In this document: piece after piece, positions 2-9,467 of the stretch
Layout: every line of letters begins with the position of its first letter
How positions within the stretch are numbered: the first letter of the stretch is position 1
Assembly: GCA_017936785.1 (NCBI GenBank)
Contig: JAGBEV010000002.1
Coordinates: 1-64,000, forward strand
Source of the DNA: Lachnospiraceae bacterium
Lineage (GTDB): Bacteria > Bacillota > Clostridia > Lachnospirales > Lachnospiraceae
Length of the DNA stretch: 64,000 nt
Reading direction: 5' to 3'
The notes under the pieces: generated by a model
What the model was told of the DNA's origin: nothing
Seen by the model: only the letters and a program-made list of their open reading frames with translations
Database searches by the model: none
Position numbers and translations under genes: made by a program

Positions 2-3000
2 GTAAACCTAAGCACCGGCAACTTCATCTACGACAAAGCCGACCTGGAGATCAAAGGAAGCACCCCCTTTGCCTTCCGCCGCTTCTATAACTCAAGAAAC
101 CGCTACGAAGGAGCGCTGGGAACAGACTGGAACCACAACTATGAAGTATCCCTGACCTTCCAAAAAAGCGGCATATCCGGGGAAGAGGAAGTGACCATCC
201 TCTTAGAGGATGGAAAAGAAGAAACCTTCCTGCCCGTGGAAGGAAACCGCTATACACCGGGAAACCAGAGCCTGGGGGCCCTTAAGAAAACCGAAAAAGG
301 CTACATCTATACCACCCTGAGCGGAGAAAAAAGCATCTTTGACGAAAAAGGCACATACCTGCGCCACGAGGACAACAACGGACAGGGGTATGATCTGACC
401 TATGAAACCATAAACACCCGGACAGAAGAAACAGCGGAAACAACAGAAACAGAAAACCCTGTGCCTTCCCGGGAAGGAAACCGAACAAAACGCCTTACCC
501 GCATCCGGAAAGATACAGGAGAAACCTTTACCCTGGCCTATGACGGAGAAGGACACCTGAAAACCGTAACAGACCATACAGGAAGGACCTTTTTTTATGA
601 AATCAGGGACCGCCACCTGGTAAAAGCCGTGCGCCCTGACGGAGGAACCTTTACCTACAGCTATGACGGAAACGGGAAACTGGCTGCAGTGACCAACCCC
701 CGTGGGATCGTGACCGTGGAAAACGAGTTCGATGAAAAACACCGGACCACCCTCCAGAAATTCCCGGACGGGACAAGCATGAGCTATGAATACGACGATG
801 AAAACCACACCGTGACCCTGACGGAGAGGAACGGATCAAAGACCATCCATATCCATGACGATAAATACCGCAATATAAAAAATATCTATCCGGATGGGGA
901 AGAAAGCTTTGCCTATAACTCCCGGAACCAGAAGACAAAGATCACGGACAAACTGGGAAATGAGACCCGCCTAAGCTATGACAACCGCGGAAACCTGACA
1001 GGGATCATCAATCCCCTGGGGACGAAACTTACCATCACCTATGAGAACCACAACAAACCCACCAACATCAAGATCAACGGAAAAGAAAAACAAAAAAACA
1101 CCTTTGACCCTAAAGGAAACCTCTTAGAAACCAGGGATGCCCTTCTAAGAAAAACAGTTTTTACATACAATGAAACAGGACTCCTGGAGACCATCATCCA
1201 GCCGGATGGAAGCACACTGAAGCTGGCCTATGACGAAAAAGGAAATATCCGGGAGATGACCGATGCCGCAGGAGAAAAAACCGCCTATACCTATGATGCC
1301 CTGAACCGCGTCATAAAAGTGACCGACCCCAAAGGAAGCACCATGACCCTGACCTATGACAGTGCCGGAAACATCCACACCCTCAAAAACGCAGCAGGAG
1401 ATGTGCGGACCTACGAATACAACGAAAGCAACAAAGTCACAAAGATCACCGACTTTGACGGAAGCACCATACAAAGAACCTATAACGTCTTAAACAAACC
1501 GGAAAAGATCACCGACCAGCAGGGAAGGGAAACAAAACTGACCTATGATGCCATGTGGAACCTGGCACGCATCATCACGCCGGATGGGGCAAAGACCACC
1601 TACCTCTACAACGAAAACAACCGCTTAACCCGCATCAAAGATGCAGCCGGAAACGTGACCCGTTATACCTATGACGGAAACGGCAACTGCACAAAAAAAG
1701 AAGACCCGACCGGGGAGACCACCCGGTTTACTTATGATGCCATAGGACGCCTGACCCGTGCAGAAGGACCGGACGGGGCAGAAATAACCTATGCCTATGA
1801 CGAAGAAGGACATGTGACAGAAGCAAAAGATGCCCTTGGAAACACCGTAACCATGGAATACGACGAAGCAGGACAGCTTATAAAAGAAACAAACCCCTTA
1901 GGATACAGCAGGACTTATGCCTACACACCCTTAGGAAAAATAGAAAGCGTGACAGACGAAGCAGGACGCAGCACTACCTATGCCTACCTGCCCGGCGGAA
2001 GACTCTCTGAAGTCACCCACAGCGACGGCACAAGAGAAACCTATACCTATGACCCGAACGGAAACATAAAAACCCATACCACCAGAGAAAACTACACCCT
2101 GACCTATACCTATGACAGCCTGGACCGCATCGTAAAAATAGAAGGAAGCGGCGGGGAGAAAAAACAATACACCTACGATGCCGTGGGAAACGTGACCGCC
2201 ATGACCGACGCAGGAGGAAACACCACCCGCTATGAATACTCCCTGACCGGACAGCTCATAAAAGTCACCGATGCCATGGGAAATGAAACAGAATACACCT
2301 ATGACCTGTGTGACCGCCTGACAGAAATCCGCCAGTACGGGGAAGAGACAGAAAACATCCCCGGAATGGACCAGGACCTTCTAAAAGCACAAAGACAGAA
2401 CCAAAAGAACCGCTCCTGCCATGTGACCCGCTATGAAAGGAATACCCTGGGACAGGTGGAGAGCATCACGGACGCCCTGGGACAGACCGAACACTATACC
2501 TACGATGCCAAAGGACAGCTTCTTTTAAAACTGGATAAAGAAGGATATCTTACAAAATACGGCTACACAGGACAGGGGGACTTAAGCCGCATCCAGTATG
2601 CGGACGGAAAAGAAGTCAGACTCTCCTACAACCCCCTGAGACAGCTGGAAGAAATGAAAGACTGGCTGGGAACCACAAAGATCGAAAACGACCCCATGGG
2701 AAGAGCCGTAAAAGTACAATACCCGGATGGAAAAGAAGTCTCCTACACCTACGGAAAGACAGGAGAAAGGACCTCCATCACCTACCCTGACGGAAAAACC
2801 ATCCTTTATACATACGATGAACAGATAAGGCTTGTGGGACTCAAAGACGGAAAAGACACCATCACCTACAGCTATGATGAGATGGGAAGACTGACAGAAA
2901 AGACCTATCCTAACGGCTGCAGGACGGACTATACCTACAACCTGCAGGGACGCCTTGCCGGACTGGCCCACAGCGATGGGGAAGGCATCCTGGACCGCTA

Positions 3001-4837
3001 TGCCTACCGGTATGACCAGATGGGAAACAAGACCGCCATCGAAAAACAAAGAAGAGGACTGCCGGAAGAAAGCGGACTCTATACCTACGGCTATGACCCC
3101 CTGGGAAGACTGTCCGAAGTGACAAAAGACGGAGAGCCTTTAAGGACCTACGGATACGACGCCTTCGGCAACCGCACCCGCATGACGGAAGGAGACCACG
3201 AGACTGCCTACACCTACAATGCCTGCAACCAGCTCATGAGCAAAGTGGATGCCATGAACGAAGAAACCTATGCCTATGACAGACGGGGAAACTTAAGCCT
3301 GATCATGGAAAACGGAACCATGAAAAACAGCTACACCTACGGAGCCCTGAACCGCCTGGAACATGCAGTAAACGGAAAAGGGGAAGCGGCAGCCTATGAA
3401 TACAACGGGCTGGGACACAGAGTAGGAAAAACCACAAAAACAGCAGCCCCTGACCCCATGGGCAGGCTGAAAGAACAGAGCCTGGATCCGGAGACAAAGA
3501 TCCGGTATACCATCGACCTGACAAAGGGATACCATAACCTGTTACAGAAAGAAGAAACAGGAAGCATCCAGACCTACCTGTGGGACGGAAACGTGGCAGG
3601 AATGAAGGAAGAAGGAAGAGGAGAGAACGGACTGACAGACCGTTCCAATCAACCGGGCACCTGTTATTACTTCCAGGATGAACTGGGAAGCCCGGTCCGC
3701 CTGATGGATGAGGAAGGAACCCTCCGGGAAACCTACGGGTATGATGAATTCGGACAGGATCTGTACGGGAATCAGGGGGAAATACAGCCCTTCGGGTACA
3801 CAGGCTACCAGAGCGACCGGGTTACAGGGACCTACTATGCCCAGGCGAGGGAGTACAGGGCGGAATTGGGAAGGTTTGCTGGGAAAGATGTTTTACGATA
3901 TTCTTGTAAAAGAGATATTTTATCATTGAATTTATATATTTATTGTAGACAAAGTCCATTGTATTATACTGATTTTAATGGACACGAAACTATTGTTGTT
4001 TCAGGGGGAACAGCAGATTCTGATCAATTTGATTATCAATTTATTGAAACTGCAATTAAAAATATAAATGATTTAAAGGCAGAAGGGGTTCCAGAGGATG
4101 ACATCACATGGATGGTCGTTGAGGCGGGATATACTCAGAGTGACTTGAATAATTTTAAGAATACAGCTGCCAAATTAGGTGTTAATTATGTAGAGATATC
4201 GGATAAAGAACAAATGAAAGATTATATTAATAATAAAGATAGTGAAAACATAAGAGCAGAAGATCCGATTACCTATATGTCGTTTTTTGCACATGGGCAA
4301 TGTCCGAAATATTCTGGTTCAGCAGAAAATCAGTTATCATTTGCATATGATATTGCAGGTGTTGATCAAGATAGTATTAATTTTACGCAGAGTGATATAG
4401 AAAGATTGAATGCAGAGGCATTTTGCAATACTACTACTTTATTTTATTCGTGCAATTCTGGAACAAAAGATGATGATGGTATGAGTTTTGCACAGGCATG
4501 GAGTAACAAAACAGGTGGATTATCTCTGGGTATAGAGAATGGCAGAACATTTTATGGTATGATTAATGTTGCCGCTTCATGGGGATTGTATGGAGGACCA
4601 ATTTGTGTTGCACCTATGGAAGTCTGGAATATGATTTGGAATACTAATTTGTGGAAGGAGAAGCAGAGACGAAAGGCGGATAGAGCCGAAAGAGGATACT
4701 CAGAATATGGATCATTAAACTATCCTTGGATGGTATCTTTAGCGGGAGATTTAGATGTGCTTAATCCGTTAAACTTTGGTCTTTTTGATAGAGGATGGAA
4801 AATATTTTTTCCAGAATCTTGTGATAAGGAGGGATAA
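2..4837 (+). CDS. Rhs/YD-repeat polymorphic toxin, 5' end outside window
   Basis: The reading frame is open from base 2, so this is the C-terminal 1,611 residues of a longer protein. The first residues (NLSTGNFIYDKADLEIKG) match the DUF6531 entry to Rhs shells. Dozens of YD repeats follow (YTYD, LTYD, YEYDE types). The conserved core end lies near 3660-3890 (YYFQDELGSPVRL, GYTGYQSD, YYAQAREYRAELGRF). Rhs shells are known to enclose a toxic C-terminus that changes between strains. Here base composition becomes AT-rich at about 3890. The tip (about 3975-4837) has hydrophobic-FFAHG (His codon 4292-4294) and, 53 residues later, TLFYSCNSG (Cys codon 4451-4453). This resembles the His/Cys dyad of caspase-fold peptidases. 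No export signal is visible because the N-terminus is missing. The Rhs assignment is certain; the tip activity is inferred. Confidence 0.93.
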   Translation, partial: VNLSTGNFIYDKADLEIKGSTPFAFRRFYNSRNRYEGALGTDWNHNYEVSLTFQKSGISGEEEVTILLEDGKEETFLPVEGNRYTPGNQSLGALKKTEKGYIYTTLSGEKSIFDEKGTYLRHEDNNGQGYDLTYETINTRTEETAETTETENPVPSREGNRTKRLTRIRKDTGETFTLAYDGEGHLKTVTDHTGRTFFYEIRDRHLVKAVRPDGGTFTYSYDGNGKLAAVTNPRGIVTVENEFDEKHRTTLQKFPDGTSMSYEYDDENHTVTLTERNGSKTIHIHDDKYRNIKNIYPDGEESFAYNSRNQKTKITDKLGNETRLSYDNRGNLTGIINPLGTKLTITYENHNKPTNIKINGKEKQKNTFDPKGNLLETRDALLRKTVFTYNETGLLETIIQPDGSTLKLAYDEKGNIREMTDAAGEKTAYTYDALNRVIKVTDPKGSTMTLTYDSAGNIHTLKNAAGDVRTYEYNESNKVTKITDFDGSTIQRTYNVLNKPEKITDQQGRETKLTYDAMWNLARIITPDGAKTTYLYNENNRLTRIKDAAGNVTRYTYDGNGNCTKKEDPTGETTRFTYDAIGRLTRAEGPDGAEITYAYDEEGHVTEAKDALGNTVTMEYDEAGQLIKETNPLGYSRTYAYTPLGKIESVTDEAGRSTTYAYLPGGRLSEVTHSDGTRETYTYDPNGNIKTHTTRENYTLTYTYDSLDRIVKIEGSGGEKKQYTYDAVGNVTAMTDAGGNTTRYEYSLTGQLIKVTDAMGNETEYTYDLCDRLTEIRQYGEETENIPGMDQDLLKAQRQNQKNRSCHVTRYERNTLGQVESITDALGQTEHYTYDAKGQLLLKLDKEGYLTKYGYTGQGDLSRIQYADGKEVRLSYNPLRQLEEMKDWLGTTKIENDPMGRAVKVQYPDGKEVSYTYGKTGERTSITYPDGKTILYTYDEQIRLVGLKDGKDTITYSYDEMGRLTEKTYPNGCRTDYTYNLQGRLAGLAHSDGEGILDRYAYRYDQMGNKTAIEKQRRGLPEESGLYTYGYDPLGRLSEVTKDGEPLRTYGYDAFGNRTRMTEGDHETAYTYNACNQLMSKVDAMNEETYAYDRRGNLSLIMENGTMKNSYTYGALNRLEHAVNGKGEAAAYEYNGLGHRVGKTTKTAAPDPMGRLKEQSLDPETKIRYTIDLTKGYHNLLQKEETGSIQTYLWDGNVAGMKEEGRGENGLTDRSNQPGTCYYFQDELGSPVRLMDEEGTLRETYGYDEFGQDLYGNQGEIQPFGYTGYQSDRVTGTYYAQAREYRAELGRFAGKDVLRYSCKRDILSLNLYIYCRQSPLYYTDFNGHETIVVSGGTADSDQFDYQFIETAIKNINDLKAEGVPEDDITWMVVEAGYTQSDLNNFKNTAAKLGVNYVEISDKEQMKDYINNKDSENIRAEDPITYMSFFAHGQCPKYSGSAENQLSFAYDIAGVDQDSINFTQSDIERLNAEAFCNTTTLFYSCNSGTKDDDGMSFAQAWSNKTGGLSLGIENGRTFYGMINVAASWGLYGGPICVAPMEVWNMIWNTNLWKEKQRRKADRAERGYSEYGSLNYPWMVSLAGDLDVLNPLNFGLFDRGWKIFFPESCDKEG

Positions 4838-4839
4838 AT

Positions 4840-5529
4840 TTGAAAGGAAGAAAAATGGCGATTATTTTAATTGTAGTTGGATTTGTAATATGTGTTGGTG
4901 GTATTTATTTTTTTCAAATGAGTTTTTTTTATTATAATAAATATAATATTCATGCAAAAAAAGCAGTATTGGATAGGTTATATTATAAATATAATCAAGA
5001 GTTTAATTTAATATCAACAGAGTTTGATAGAAAAGAGACGACAACAGGGGGAGCTAGATATGTAAATGTATGGACTTTTGTCTTTAAAGATAATAGTGAA
5101 AGGCAATTTTATGCATATTTATGGATTTATGGAATGGTTGGAAAGGGAGATGGCAATTATAATGCTACAGATTATTATACTTATATAGCTGATACTTATG
5201 GGCAACTTCGTATTGAAGAAGATTTGGAAAACGAATTTGATTTAAATAAATATAGACAACAGAAAGATGCTAAAGCTCCGAATCAAGAAGATTATATATT
5301 TGTTTGTACAAATAATAATGCTGCTGAAATAGCAGAAATGTTAACTAAGATATATTTTAAAGAAAGAGAACTTAGTAAAGAGGGATGTTTGAATTGTATA
5401 GTAAACAATGAAGAAGGGAAAAAAATGTTTTCCTATCGTTGGAGAGAAATTACCAAAGAATTGCAAGATGAAAATAAAGAAATTACAGAGGAAACAGTTT
5501 GTAATTATATTTTGCAGAAATTACAGTGA
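4840..5529 (+). CDS. Putative immunity protein for the Rhs tip, membrane-anchored
   Basis: This is an unrecognised 229-residue protein starting at TTG 4840, chosen because AAGGAGG at 4826-4832 lies seven bases upstream; ATG 4855 is an alternative. It has one N-terminal membrane segment (about residues 6-24, IILIVVGFVICVGGIYFF) and no lipobox. The rest is a charged, Tyr-rich soluble domain. It starts 2 nt after the Rhs stop and shares the AT-rich composition of the Rhs tip, so both were probably acquired together. In Rhs systems the gene directly behind the toxin tip usually encodes the cognate immunity protein, and position is the only evidence here. An unrelated accessory gene is possible. 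Confidence 0.6.
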   Translation: MKGRKMAIILIVVGFVICVGGIYFFQMSFFYYNKYNIHAKKAVLDRLYYKYNQEFNLISTEFDRKETTTGGARYVNVWTFVFKDNSERQFYAYLWIYGMVGKGDGNYNATDYYTYIADTYGQLRIEEDLENEFDLNKYRQQKDAKAPNQEDYIFVCTNNNAAEIAEMLTKIYFKERELSKEGCLNCIVNNEEGKKMFSYRWREITKELQDENKEITEETVCNYILQKLQ

Positions 5530-5585
5530 TCAATTTATTGTGATAGTATAAAATGATAAATAAGAAAAGAGGAGAGCTTTCTCGC

Positions 5586-5609
5586 GAAAGCGGGCTCTAT
5601 ACCTATGGT
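5586..5609 (+). pseudogene. Short Rhs core remnant
   Basis: The stretch encodes ESGLYTYG, identical to eight residues of the intact Rhs core encoded near 3069-3092, with only silent differences. It is followed immediately by sequence that looks like an insertion-element end (from about 5612). Displaced fragments of older Rhs tips downstream of the active one are typical of Rhs loci. The fragment is very short, so chance similarity is not fully excluded. Confidence 0.45.
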
Positions 5610-5654
5610 CCTGTGTCAAGATTTAGAGCAAATTGAAATGAGAAGTTTTGTCAG

Positions 5655-5720
5655 CTAAGCCACTAATAGAGAATTTACCCTCTCATACAGTTTTTCAAAT
5701 TCGTCCGGTGATATGTAGTC
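5655..5720 (-). pseudogene. Remnant of an IS3-type transposase C-terminus
   Basis: On the minus strand this reads DYISPDEFEKLYERVNSLLV then Ala and a stop. The aromatic-x-SP-x-EFE pattern just before the stop is the usual end of IS3-family transposase OrfB. The sequence beyond the stop, up to TGTGTCAAG at 5612-5620, could be the terminal inverted repeat, abutting the Rhs remnant. No other part of a transposase is present, so the element has decayed or been mostly deleted. The assignment rests on about 20 residues. Confidence 0.4.
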
Positions 5721-6053: not shown

Positions 6054-6812
6054 ATGAGAAAGAAAATATTGTCAATACCCGAGTCAAAGCGGCGCATAAT
6101 TTTTACTATTGGTGCCCTGCTGATCGCAGGAATTTATGTTTGGAGGCTGAGTAATATTTTAACAGCAAAAAAGCAGACAATAACTGAACTGGCAGAATAT
6201 TACATGACACCGAGATATAGTTCATGTTGGGAAAAATTAAATAAAGAAACTTCAGGAACATACTATCGAGGGGGAATGCTTGACGATTTTGATTATAGAT
6301 GTTCTGTTGCAATAAAATGGAATGGGGAAACCTATCGTTTTTTCAGGGAGCAATATCCTTCTTCTTTTGAGTATGCCAAAAACGGAATCTGGATGGAAAT
6401 ATATCCGAAAGAAGTTTACAATCCGGATGTGAAGAAAGTCAGAATCCAATCCTATGGTAATAATCATCGGATATCTGTACGGATTTTTTATGATAATCAG
6501 GATGAGGAATGTTATGATATTGAATATGTGGATGGAAATTACATTCCTAATTTTGTGATGGAAAAAGAGATCCGGATGTCCAGTAAGGAAATTTGTGAGA
6601 TGGTTCAAACCGGTAATCAAATATTTGAACTGACTATGGATGATATGTGGCATTATCAAAGAAAACGTTCTCTGATAAGTGCCGTTTTGTGGGCAATTAT
6701 CGCATTGATGATCTGGATGATGATAATGCTGCCCCACAAAATTTTTATAAAGAAAAATTTTAATAAGGAAGAAACGGAAGAGGCAAGAGAGTTCTATGAA
6801 AAAGATCATTAA
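6054..6812 (+). CDS. Hypothetical membrane protein with two membrane segments
   Basis: This 252-residue protein is not recognised. A basic N-terminus leads into a first membrane helix (about residues 15-31, IIFTIGALLIAGIYVW). A soluble domain of roughly 170 residues follows, then a second helix near the C-terminus (SAVLWAIIALMIWMMIML) and a charged tail. The middle domain is probably outside the cell. ATG 6054 is preceded by a purine-rich AAAGGAAAAGGAAA site. The gene overlaps the next one by 17 bases, which suggests translational coupling, and its promoter carries a palindromic operator candidate. Composition is AT-rich like the Rhs tip. No function is proposed. Confidence 0.75.
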   Translation: MRKKILSIPESKRRIIFTIGALLIAGIYVWRLSNILTAKKQTITELAEYYMTPRYSSCWEKLNKETSGTYYRGGMLDDFDYRCSVAIKWNGETYRFFREQYPSSFEYAKNGIWMEIYPKEVYNPDVKKVRIQSYGNNHRISVRIFYDNQDEECYDIEYVDGNYIPNFVMEKEIRMSSKEICEMVQTGNQIFELTMDDMWHYQRKRSLISAVLWAIIALMIWMMIMLPHKIFIKKNFNKEETEEAREFYEKDH

Positions 6813-8586
6813 AATGCTGGAAATATTATGTCTGATATGCTTTTTAACAGGATTGTTATATGGTTGTGGTTATGCATATGAATACGGCTTGGAAAATATC
6901 GAAGAAACCGAAGAAGACAGGGAAGAGCAGATCAATATTAGAGTCAATGCAGATGATGCGCCTGTTTCTCTGGAAGAAAAACTTGCAGGTTGTGAGCAAT
7001 TGACTAAATTAACAATTTTTGTAGAAACAGGTACGGCAGAAGAAAAAATATTAGATTATGACTATTTAAGTAATTTTCCTAATCTTCAGTCTTTGACTAT
7101 ACACGATGAAAATTTGAGTGACATTTCATTTGTCACAGAGCTTCGTGAGTTGTATTTATTAGATTTAAGGGATTGTTCCATTAAGGATGTAACTCCTGTG
7201 TCTGAACTGGACCGGCTGTTATATTTATATTTGAGTAGAAATCAGATTTATGATGTCAGTCCCCTTGCTGAAATGAATTTGTTAATGGAATTGGAACTTG
7301 ATGGGAATCCTCTGGAAGATCCGGGGCAACTGGGATGCCTGTTGGAACACCTGCAGTATTTAAATATGGACAATACAGGAATAACGGATATTACTTCTTT
7401 AAGCAGGGCTACATTCATTAAGAAATTGTCATTAAAAAATAATCAGATTGCAAATTTTGATAGTCTGGGCGGCTTGGTTTATTTGACGGACCTGGATATC
7501 AGTGGGAATCCTGTTGAATCTTCTTCTGTGTTTTTATACGTTCCCAATACTAAATTATATTCTTTAGCAGATTGCGAAAAAGAACCATGGAAGCAGGAAA
7601 TTGATAAAGCTTTAAATGTTTATAATCCTATAGACATAGAGCAGGAAGCCATGATAAGTCTTGTTACAGATTGTGGCATTGGGGATTTTAATGGGGATGG
7701 AATTGCAGATCTGGGAATGAGTGTATGGTGGTGTGATTATAGTAAGGATGTGAATGAAAAAAGATTTTATCTTTATCCGGGAAATGGAAACGGGTACGAT
7801 CAGCCACTGGAACCCCTTGTTTTACAAACCTATTTAGGTCAGCAGCCGGAAGAATCTATTATGATAACCGGGGGGAAGGTGTATTTTTATAGTCAGATTT
7901 CTCAAGGGAGTGAGTGTGAAAAGGCGATCAGGGTAATGAATTATAAGGATGGAGTCTGGGGATGTGAAGTGTACAGTTGTTCCCGCTGGTATACCTGTTT
8001 TTCGGAAGAATCAGATAAAACTATACTGGGCATATTTGAATCAGCAGATTTTAGTACAAATCAGTATAAAGCGTATTTTTACATTGATGACAATAATGGC
8101 TTTTTTCATAAATATATCATGAAAAAAAATAAACTGACCAATTGTATCAGTCAGAGTACGGCAGCAGGAGAAAATATGGTTCCGGTCATTATTGATTATT
8201 ACCCGAAACTTCCTGATTTTACAAAGGCAGAGTATGGATTCAGACTGGCAGAAACTTTAGAAGAAAGAGAACACTATCCGGAAACGGCGCTGGATAAAAT
8301 CATTAAGGATTACTATCCAGATTATCCCGCACAAAAGATTTATTATGACAGAGAATGTATCAATAATCTGGAGGGAATCATGGGAATCATGCTTCCGGAA
8401 TATTTTTACAGGGTAGAAACGGAGGAAGGAACAATATCCATTGTTTTTTCAGAAGAATGTTATGCCACCAAGTATATATTCTACGCATACTTAAATGGTG
8501 ATATATATGAGGAATATGTTTACAATCAAAGAGAAAATGTGCTAATGTTGAGAAAGGATTATGACAATCTGGAATCTGTATGGTAA
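6796..8586 (+). CDS. Leucine-rich-repeat lipoprotein with FG-GAP-like segment
   Basis: This 596-residue protein has a signal peptide ending in LLYGC, so Cys24 is a likely lipidation site, although Tyr before Gly is not the commonest lipobox residue. Residues of about 45-255 form internalin-like leucine-rich repeats (for example LYLYLSRNQIYDVSPLAEM and LTDLDISGNPVESS). Next comes a Ca-binding-looking loop, IGDFNGDGIADLG, as in FG-GAP/VCBS repeats, and then a long C-terminal domain I do not recognise. It is probably anchored on the outer face of the membrane and binds protein or carbohydrate. It overlaps the 6054 gene and precedes the 8619 gene by 32 bases, making a three-gene unit. Confidence 0.8.
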   Translation: MKKIIKMLEILCLICFLTGLLYGCGYAYEYGLENIEETEEDREEQINIRVNADDAPVSLEEKLAGCEQLTKLTIFVETGTAEEKILDYDYLSNFPNLQSLTIHDENLSDISFVTELRELYLLDLRDCSIKDVTPVSELDRLLYLYLSRNQIYDVSPLAEMNLLMELELDGNPLEDPGQLGCLLEHLQYLNMDNTGITDITSLSRATFIKKLSLKNNQIANFDSLGGLVYLTDLDISGNPVESSSVFLYVPNTKLYSLADCEKEPWKQEIDKALNVYNPIDIEQEAMISLVTDCGIGDFNGDGIADLGMSVWWCDYSKDVNEKRFYLYPGNGNGYDQPLEPLVLQTYLGQQPEESIMITGGKVYFYSQISQGSECEKAIRVMNYKDGVWGCEVYSCSRWYTCFSEESDKTILGIFESADFSTNQYKAYFYIDDNNGFFHKYIMKKNKLTNCISQSTAAGENMVPVIIDYYPKLPDFTKAEYGFRLAETLEEREHYPETALDKIIKDYYPDYPAQKIYYDRECINNLEGIMGIMLPEYFYRVETEEGTISIVFSEECYATKYIFYAYLNGDIYEEYVYNQRENVLMLRKDYDNLESVW

Positions 8587-8618
8587 AGGAAAGAAAGTAG
8601 CAGAGAGGAAGTGCGCAC

Positions 8619-9467
8619 TTGGAAAATCTACATAGTAAATACTATCAATACGATGCAAAAAATGCAATGAAACATTATATAAAAGAGCTGCGCATTCGCA
8701 AGGGTGTCTGGATAGTAGTTTGCGCTTTTTTACTCATAAGTCTGATCATGATACTGTTAGAACAAAAAAGAGTCTGGCTGTTTTGGGGAATCTATATTCT
8801 GATAATATTAACAATGTTTGCATATATACTGGGGCAGCAAATCTGTTTTAGAAAGTTGATGAATATATTGCTTTTGGATTGTGACCCCCAAAAAATGTTT
8901 GAGATAATTGCCATGATAGAGCAGCGGGATAAACAGGGAAAGGCAAGAAATAATTGTGCCATGCTCAAAGCCCAGTGTTGTTTTTATATTTTAGGACGGG
9001 AAGAGGAAGGATATACATATTTAAACAAGGTTTCTTTTAAAAAGAAACGGCTTGGAAATGAGACGAGACGTCTGTTACTATATGCTAACTATTATAAAAG
9101 AAAAAAAGATTGGCAAAATTTTGAACTTGTAAAAAAGGATTTGCTCAGCCTGCCCCAACTTATCAGGCATAAACATTTTGAAGAAAAAGACTATGATGTG
9201 GCAGTACAATTTATCAATCTTTATGAACTTCAAAGAGATGGCAGGACACAGGAAGCAAGAACCTTGCTCAACAAATTATTGTGTGGAAATTGTAGTATGT
9301 TGAATCGGGTGTGCTTTCAAATGTGTCTGGCTGAACTCGATCTGATGGAGGGAGAGTATCATAATGCAAAGCAGCATCTGGAATTTGTAATACGCAACGG
9401 AAATACATTATATCATGTATCCGAAGCAAAAGAAAAAATGGCGATGTTACAGCAGCAACTTTTATAG
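8619..9467 (+). CDS. Hypothetical membrane protein with helical-repeat cytoplasmic part
   Basis: This 282-residue protein starts at TTG 8619 behind an AGAGAGGAAG site. Two closely spaced membrane helices lie at about residues 30-48 and 53-71 (VWIVVCAFLLISLIMILL; LFWGIYILIILTMFAYIL). The remaining 200 residues are predicted helical, with alanine/leucine spacing like TPR-type repeats (AQCCFYILGREEEGYTYLN; CLAELDLMEGEYHNAKQHL). It is the last gene of the 6054-9467 set and is convergent with the nuclease gene at 9489. It may be a scaffold for the LRR lipoprotein; this is inference only. Confidence 0.7.
   Translation: MENLHSKYYQYDAKNAMKHYIKELRIRKGVWIVVCAFLLISLIMILLEQKRVWLFWGIYILIILTMFAYILGQQICFRKLMNILLLDCDPQKMFEIIAMIEQRDKQGKARNNCAMLKAQCCFYILGREEEGYTYLNKVSFKKKRLGNETRRLLLYANYYKRKKDWQNFELVKKDLLSLPQLIRHKHFEEKDYDVAVQFINLYELQRDGRTQEARTLLNKLLCGNCSMLNRVCFQMCLAELDLMEGEYHNAKQHLEFVIRNGNTLYHVSEAKEKMAMLQQQLL

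What the first reader, a model, noticed from the sequence alone, without database searches (positions are those of the whole stretch)
3890..5529. Rhs tip with caspase-fold-like His/Cys pair, followed by candidate immunity gene
Directly seen: the tip has hydrophobic-FFAHG (His codon 4292) and, 53 residues on, TLFYSCNSG (Cys codon 4451), each after a hydrophobic strand. Clan CD peptidases (caspases, CHAT) use a His-Gly and a strand-terminal Cys with similar spacing. The tip and the next gene share AT-rich composition, unlike the Rhs core. Inference: the exchangeable tip is a peptidase-like toxin neutralised by the 4840 membrane-anchored protein. Rhs C-termini with a protease-like fold are far less described than nucleases or NADases.
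Basis: partly seen in the sequence, partly recalled or inferred. Interest (0 to 1): 0.78.

Follow-up and report, generated by a model that had tools for sequence, protein, structure and literature searches.

The report
Caspase-like protease toxin on Rhs tip
The exchangeable end of this large bacterial Rhs protein looks like a weapon that cuts proteins, related to caspases and gingipains, and it is made together with a membrane-anchored protector protein, which suggests that it attacks rivals at the outer face of their cell membrane.

Summary
The Rhs frame (2-4837) switches at about 3890 from 51% to 34% GC, and its tip carries FFAHG (His 4292) and FYSCNSG (Cys 4451). In 11 distinct homologues (25-59% identical) this His, its Gly and this Cys are invariant. 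One homologue passes Pfam's cut-off for DUF4347 (E 1.9e-6); two give sub-threshold hits to gingipain family C25, with the family Cys near that family's Cys column. The domain sits on Rhs carriers (9 of 11), in a VgrG locus, and near a SUKH gene, as polymorphic toxins do. Twelve of 12 neighbouring candidate immunity proteins, in four groups without clear mutual similarity, have one N-terminal hydrophobic segment, one of them with a lipobox. This suggests an extracytoplasmic site, like TelC/TipC, though orientation is unproven. 'Tox-Caspase' was predicted in 2012 (PMC3482391), so the kind is known. New are this Bacillota subfamily and its anchored partners.

The parts
2..3985 (+). Rhs core (DUF6531, 25 RHS-repeat stretches, Rhs-associated core at about 3740-3985); 5' end lost at the contig edge; GC step at about 3890 inside it
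3974..4837 (+). tip domain (287 aa and stop), predicted clan-CD-like cysteine peptidase toxin; first residues overlap the end of the core match
4292..4294 (+). predicted catalytic His (H107 of the tip), 11 of 11 homologues
4451..4453 (+). predicted catalytic Cys (C160 of the tip), 11 of 11 homologues
4544..4546 (+). R191 in [GA][RK][TS]xY; basic in 11 of 11; speculative S1-pocket residue
   Evidence: the role is inference
4826..4833 (+). Shine-Dalgarno-like AAGGAGGG inside the toxin frame, six bases before the TTG of the next gene
   Evidence: read by eye
4840..5529 (+). candidate immunity gene, 229 aa, one N-terminal hydrophobic segment, no Pfam family over its cut-off
5565..5612 (+). likely relic of the Rhs core downstream of the immunity gene, a trace of cassette exchange

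Best explanation
The tip is a polymorphic-toxin domain: a caspase/gingipain-type (clan CD) cysteine peptidase with a His107-Cys160 dyad. It is exported on the end of a surface Rhs protein, meets a neighbouring cell and cleaves an essential protein or protein segment exposed on the outer face of the target's cytoplasmic membrane. The 4840 protein, anchored by its N-terminal helix with its soluble domain outside, binds and blocks the toxin in sister cells. Shown here: conservation, carrier exchange and gene pairing. Inferred: the fold (about 0.75), proteolysis (about 0.7), extracytoplasmic site (about 0.6) and immunity by binding (about 0.75). The target is unknown.
For: H107, G108, C160 and 12 other residues are invariant in 11 of 11 homologues at 25-59% identity. 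L023 matches DUF4347 above its cut-off (28.2 against 24.6 bits, E 1.9e-6), L026 at 3e-4 and L029 at 0.015; C25 hits are L023 6.7e-4 and L029 0.0047-0.0049, both below its cut-off. Counted from the C-terminal end of the match, the Cys maps to DUF4347 position 97-98 in all three and to C25 position 272-273 in both; a true C25 protein (L032) has its Cys at 273-274. Counted from the other end the values spread: DUF4347 98-104, C25 271 and 281. The same domain ends Rhs-type frames (9 of 11; Pfam RHS repeats in window, L021, L023, L026, L029, the other four read by eye), sits in a VgrG/FHA/PP2C locus (L003 in L049) and stands alone near a SUKH gene (L013 in L048). Twelve of 12 downstream proteins have a single N-terminal hydrophobic segment, one with a lipobox by eye, in four groups not linked by BLAST at E below 0.1. 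PMC3482391 says that all but few immunity proteins are cytoplasmic. L023 begins with a signal-peptide-like stretch (by eye; the frame runs off the locus) and the L025 carrier has SLH domains, both fitting a cell-surface Rhs.
Against: No structure could be predicted. The window tip itself passes no family's cut-off; of the 11 homologues scanned 1 passes one. The family HMM scored one C25 and three C14 proteins no better than shuffles: the real protein was reached or beaten by 62 of 205, 147 of 239, 25 of 234 and 13 of 235 reported shuffles (of 300 each), and a control frame scored higher than all four; HHalign likewise. Membrane orientation by charge is not decisive: N-side over C-side in 6 of 12, equal in 2, lower in 4, or 5, 4 and 3 by a second count, and it depends on the start codon chosen. 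A SUKH gene, a cytoplasmic immunity type (recalled), lies near the G714 copy. L013 lacks about the first 45 residues.
Confidence: 0.6

Rival explanations
1. The domain is a releasing (self-processing) peptidase that cuts the Rhs protein, not the toxin itself.
For: PMC3482391 states that most caspase-like domains in polymorphic toxins are releasing peptidases.
Against: Those usually lie just upstream of another toxin domain (same passage); here the domain is the last one in 11 of 11, followed only by a tail. It also occurs without Rhs (L003, L013), and beside an anchored candidate immunity gene in 11 of 11.
Confidence: 0.12
2. The toxin acts in the cytoplasm, and the anchored partner only intercepts it at the membrane on its way in.
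For: PMC3482391 suggests this for two immunity proteins made of two membrane helices. Protection by membrane proteins against an extracellular toxin form is known for EsxX, with a separate cytoplasmic immunity pair (abstract of PMC12744356).
Against: Four partner groups without clear mutual similarity share the same single-anchor layout, which is simplest if the site of action is outside. I did not search systematically for second, cytoplasmic immunity genes.
Confidence: 0.2
3. The domain is another alpha/beta enzyme (Rossmann or HUP-like), and the His and Cys have a different role.
For: The N-terminal half resembles designed Rossmann-like proteins (E 4e-4). Two ATP-PPi-loop-like proteins gave weak hits to model positions 44-123 of 246 (E 7.5e-4 and 9.2e-4), a stretch that probably reaches the His, and L021 gave a weak Arginosuc_synth hit (0.25).
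Against: None of these hits reaches the Cys or the invariant block up to Tyr194, which is what DUF4347 and C25 match.
Confidence: 0.15
4. The tip in this window is a decayed, inactive remnant.
For: Contig edge, an Rhs-core relic and an insertion-sequence relic downstream; copies with stops or only fragments exist elsewhere (L005, L015).
Against: The frame is open over 1611 codons and keeps every residue that the ten other homologues all share.
Confidence: 0.08

Closest known systems
Tox-Caspase of polymorphic toxin systems (PMC3482391; passages read)
   Same: Caspase-like H and C domain, C-terminal in polymorphic toxins, RHS carriers, Firmicutes among the hosts; predicted toxin
   Different: The immunity partner named there is Imm36 (DUF600); here the partners scanned match no Pfam or NCBIfam family over a cut-off and are anchored. 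The window's tip passes no profile's cut-off.
DUF4347 (PF14252), including PA0256, a putative T6SS toxin (PMC8262886; one passage read)
   Same: L023 passes the family's cut-off; the H and C region is aligned
   Different: The other ten homologues, the window's included, do not pass it. For PA0256 the authors say the genomic organisation does not suggest an immunity gene.
Peptidase family C25 (gingipain type)
   Same: HG motif and C-x-T-G motif (by eye in L032); Cys register agrees when counted from the C-terminal end
   Different: Below the cut-off; profile comparison with one C25 protein was negative
TelC/TipC of Streptococcus intermedius (PMC6193138; abstract and passages read)
   Same: Gram-positive toxin acting in the inner wall zone, neutralised by a protein with one N-terminal transmembrane segment and an outward domain
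   Different: TelC is a lipid II phosphatase exported by a T7SS; no sequence link to this domain was looked for
VgrG2b of Pseudomonas aeruginosa (PMC6899460; abstract and outline read)
   Same: A peptidase-family toxin acting outside the cytoplasm, with an immunity protein
   Different: Zinc metallopeptidase, Gram-negative, T6SS

Membership tests
Rhs polymorphic toxins | RHS repeats and conserved core followed by a variable C-terminal tip | tested here: met
   the tip is not present elsewhere in the own genome, where other Rhs-like frames occur
Rhs polymorphic toxins | same tip found on unrelated carriers | tested here: met
   Rhs-type 9 of 11, VgrG-type locus 1, stand-alone near SUKH 1
Rhs polymorphic toxins | adjacent gene gives immunity | not testable with these tools
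   only gene pairing shown
Tox-Caspase | invariant H and C | tested here: met
   11 of 11
Tox-Caspase | caspase-like alpha/beta fold | not testable with these tools
   structure prediction unavailable
Tox-Caspase | C-terminal position (toxin versions) | tested here: met
DUF4347 (PF14252) | score over the curated cut-off | tested here: inconclusive
   1 of 11 homologues (L023) over it; the window tip not
Peptidase family C25 | score over the curated cut-off | tested here: not met
   best 19.4 against 23 bits
Clan CD peptidases in general | detectable profile similarity to a caspase (C14) or C25 protein | tested here: not met
   against four single proteins, against one; weak test
Clan CD peptidases in general | proteolytic activity that needs the Cys | not testable with these tools
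   needs an experiment

The most novel reading that the evidence does not exclude
A family of caspase-fold protease toxins works outside the cytoplasm of Gram-positive bacteria, cutting membrane proteins from their outer face, and is held in check by several unrelated families of membrane-tethered inhibitors. The invariant basic residue after the fifth predicted strand (R/K191) would give it a preference for acidic residues at the cut site, like eukaryotic caspases.
Probability: 0.25. Interest if true: 0.75.

Novelty: new variant of a known kind. Interest (0 to 1): 0.52.

Why it matters
Caspase-like toxin tips have been proposed since 2012. In the listings I saw, no experimental study of one appeared (open-licence PubMed Central only, and the longer listings were capped at 10-15 papers). 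This family gives a compact, testable case: an invariant dyad, several natural homologues and tethered candidate inhibitors from four groups. If right, it adds a proteolytic weapon acting at the Gram-positive cell surface, and a set of natural inhibitors of a caspase-type enzyme.

Tried and rejected
Family scans of the window tip in Pfam, NCBIfam, PADLOC and PHROGs gave nothing over a cut-off, and a PDB sequence search nothing significant. NCBIfam on the 8 members of A4 gave only weak single hits (best E 0.0082). Plasmid, phage and viral-contig searches with the tip, the alignments or L023 gave no match. DUF4347 was not found in 199 genomes of the phylum (the control genomes were silent too, so this proves little).

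Direct comparison of the family with a C25 protein (L032) and three C14 proteins (L033-L035) was no better than shuffles or control frames (44 controls; the same selection), nor by HHalign with L032. I report this as a negative. Single-sequence targets make it a weak test.

Weak hits rejected as unrelated, from the frames around them: L006, L007 and L008 (E 0.0047-0.008), L020 (E 1e-4, a deacetylase-like frame by eye), L030 and L031 (ATP-PPi-loop-like frames by eye). Fragments left out of the 11: L005, L015, L016 and L017, which lack one or both motifs or are broken by stops. Duplicates merged: L012=L021, L019=L022, L014 and L018=L025, L004=L026, L028=L024; L009 and L011 belong to L003.

I considered R94 (invariant) as an S1-pocket residue and dropped it. 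It lies before the His strand, probably at the far end from the active site (inference).

One literature search was badly set (213,139 papers) and is not used.

Full report
WHAT IS THERE. The window starts inside an Rhs gene at the first base of its contig (G000:C5), so the export signal is lost. The frame 2-4837 has DUF6531 and 25 RHS-repeat stretches. GC drops from 0.506 (2-3889) to 0.343 (3890-4837) and 0.271 (4840-5529). The step falls inside the Rhs-associated core match, which covers residues 1247-1328 of the frame, about 3740-3985 (49.1 bits against a cut-off of 32.5). The aligned tip is 3974-4834, 287 residues. It contains ITYMSFFAHG (His codon 4292) and TTLFYSCNSG (Cys codon 4451), 53 residues apart. 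The next gene (4840-5529, TTG start, AAGGAGGG six bases before it) encodes 229 residues with one N-terminal hydrophobic segment.

RELATIVES. The tip has no second copy in its own genome. Searches of related genomes gave matches in 7 of 397 (family, E 0.01), 8 of 392 (order, E 0.001), 3 of 398 (phylum) and 5 of 391 (class), own genome included each time; some are fragments or false hits (listed under tried and rejected). A pattern scan of the collection of 84,980 species genomes gave 42 candidate stretches, 6 of them relatives. Merged, there are 11 distinct full or nearly full sequences: the window, Butyrivibrio sp. INlla21 (L021), Peptococcaceae UBA5356 (L022), a Bacillota MAG (L023), an Oscillospiraceae MAG (L024), a Clostridiales MAG with two (L025), a Johnsonella MAG (L026), and nameless genomes G172 (L003), G714 (L013) and G1379 (L029). 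Pairwise identity is 25-59%. The named relatives are all Bacillota; the nameless ones come from searches limited to the window's own phylum. Plasmid, phage and viral collections gave none.

CONSERVATION. Of 161 gap-free columns 15 are invariant in all 11: Y84, R94, H107, G108, A149, F150, F157, C160, G163, F172, A173, Q174, W176, Y194 and P251. The window tip's other His is shared by 4 of 11 and its four other Cys by at most 3. The His-Cys distance varies from 43 to 58, so the two motifs are kept while the loop between them is not. Position 191 is Arg or Lys in 11 of 11 within [GA][RK][TS]xY.

FOLD. Among the 11, all scanned in Pfam, L023 passes the cut-off for DUF4347 (28.2 against 24.6 bits, E 1.9e-6), L026 reaches 3e-4 and L029 0.015. 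Peptidase_C25, the gingipain family, is hit below its cut-off by L023 (6.7e-4) and L029 (0.0047-0.0049). From the reported ranges I computed where the residues fall. Counted from the C-terminal end of the match the Cys lies at DUF4347 position 97-98 in all three (98-104 from the other end), and at C25 position 272-273 in both (281 and 271 from the other end); a true C25 protein (L032, E 4.4e-15) has its Cys at 273-274. The His of L023 falls at 238 counted from the N-terminal end (true member 236), while that of L029 lies outside its C25 match. That DUF4347 and C25 belong to clan CD is recalled, not looked up. Against this: the window tip itself passes no cut-off. The family HMM does not separate one C25 and three C14 proteins from their shuffles (beaten or equalled by 62 of 205, 147 of 239, 25 of 234 and 13 of 235 reported shuffles; one control frame outscored all four), and HHalign gave nothing. 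The N-terminal half matches designed Rossmann-like proteins (E 4e-4), which fits a parallel alpha/beta sheet but is not specific. I put the caspase-type fold at about 0.75.

CARRIERS. Nine of 11 lie at the end of Rhs-type frames: Pfam RHS repeats are confirmed for the window, L021, L023, L026 and L029; the core-end motif was read by eye in L022, L024 and both L025 copies. L023 begins with a signal-peptide-like stretch (by eye; the frame runs off the locus) and one L025 carrier has SLH domains, both fitting a cell-surface protein. In G172 the domain is fused to a different 112-residue N-terminus in a locus with two VgrG-like genes (Phage_GPD 30.6 bits, over the cut-off of 30.1, and 26.9, under it) and FHA and PP2C genes. 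In G714 it stands alone and lacks about its first 45 residues; upstream lie two small genes, one coiled-coil-like with a weak YwqH-like hit (E 0.029), and then a SUKH gene (SMI1_KNR4, E 8.2e-13). One toxin domain on several delivery vehicles is the hallmark of polymorphic toxins.

PARTNERS. I examined 12 proteins encoded directly downstream: one for each of the 11 domains, and L016, which follows a tail fragment. All 12 have a single N-terminal hydrophobic segment and no other above the threshold; the G714 one ends it in LVGC, a lipobox (pattern recalled). BLAST puts them in four groups not linked at E below 0.1: window, L012 and L016; L003, L004, L014, L019, L023, L024 and L029; L018 alone; L013 alone. 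PMC3482391 says that all but few immunity proteins are cytoplasmic, and that a subset of those paired with the surface-acting L,D-peptidase are secreted or TM proteins. I infer that the toxin acts outside the cytoplasm, as TelC does, whose inhibitor TipC has the same layout (PMC6193138). Charges around the helix do not settle the orientation: N-side higher, equal and lower in 6, 2 and 4 of 12, or 5, 4 and 3 of 12 by a second count. The lipobox case does argue for outside.

MECHANISM. Most likely: a surface Rhs protein presents the tip to a neighbour, the peptidase cleaves an outward-facing part of an essential membrane protein, and siblings are protected by the tethered partner. Shown: the sequence facts above. 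Inferred: fold, proteolysis, site, binding. Unknown: target and export route in this strain.

KNOWN OR NEW. Tox-Caspase is in the 2012 catalogue, with C-terminal versions called likely toxins and Imm36 as partner (PMC3482391, passages). PA0256, a DUF4347 protein, has been called a putative T6SS toxin (PMC8262886, one passage). The listings showed no experimental study of a caspase-like toxin tip; they cover open-licence PubMed Central only, and searches listed only the top 10-15 of 68-673 papers. A papain-type protease toxin (PMC12136450, passages) and a periplasmic metallopeptidase toxin (PMC6899460, abstract) are known, so proteolysis as a weapon is not new. This is therefore a new variant of a known kind.

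Noticed in passing
window 5565-5612 (+): A likely relic of the Rhs core (RGELSRESGLYTYG against RGLPEESGLYTYG) lies after the immunity gene (19 of 20 bases identical at 5586-5605, E 5e-4), as expected if tip cassettes were exchanged or stacked.
   Followed up: partly
window 5655-5720 (-): C-terminal relic of an insertion-sequence transposase (YISPDEFEKLYERVNSLL); the IS3-type name is recalled, no search was made.
   Followed up: no
window 6054-9467 (+): Three further genes with hydrophobic N-terminal stretches follow, one with leucine-rich repeats (LRR_4 E 1.2e-16); possibly more immunity or surface genes.
   Followed up: no
L004 2824-3234: In the Johnsonella MAG the same kind of Rhs core sequence restarts after the immunity gene, a tandem tip arrangement (by eye).
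   Followed up: no
L049 1-17001: A locus with FHA, PP2C, an 853-residue frame and two VgrG-like genes carries the toxin with two copies of its immunity gene: a contractile-injection-like system in the window's family.
   Followed up: partly
L003 1138-1473: A 112-residue N-terminal domain with no Pfam or NCBIfam match in front of the toxin in the VgrG locus; a possible loading domain.
   Followed up: no
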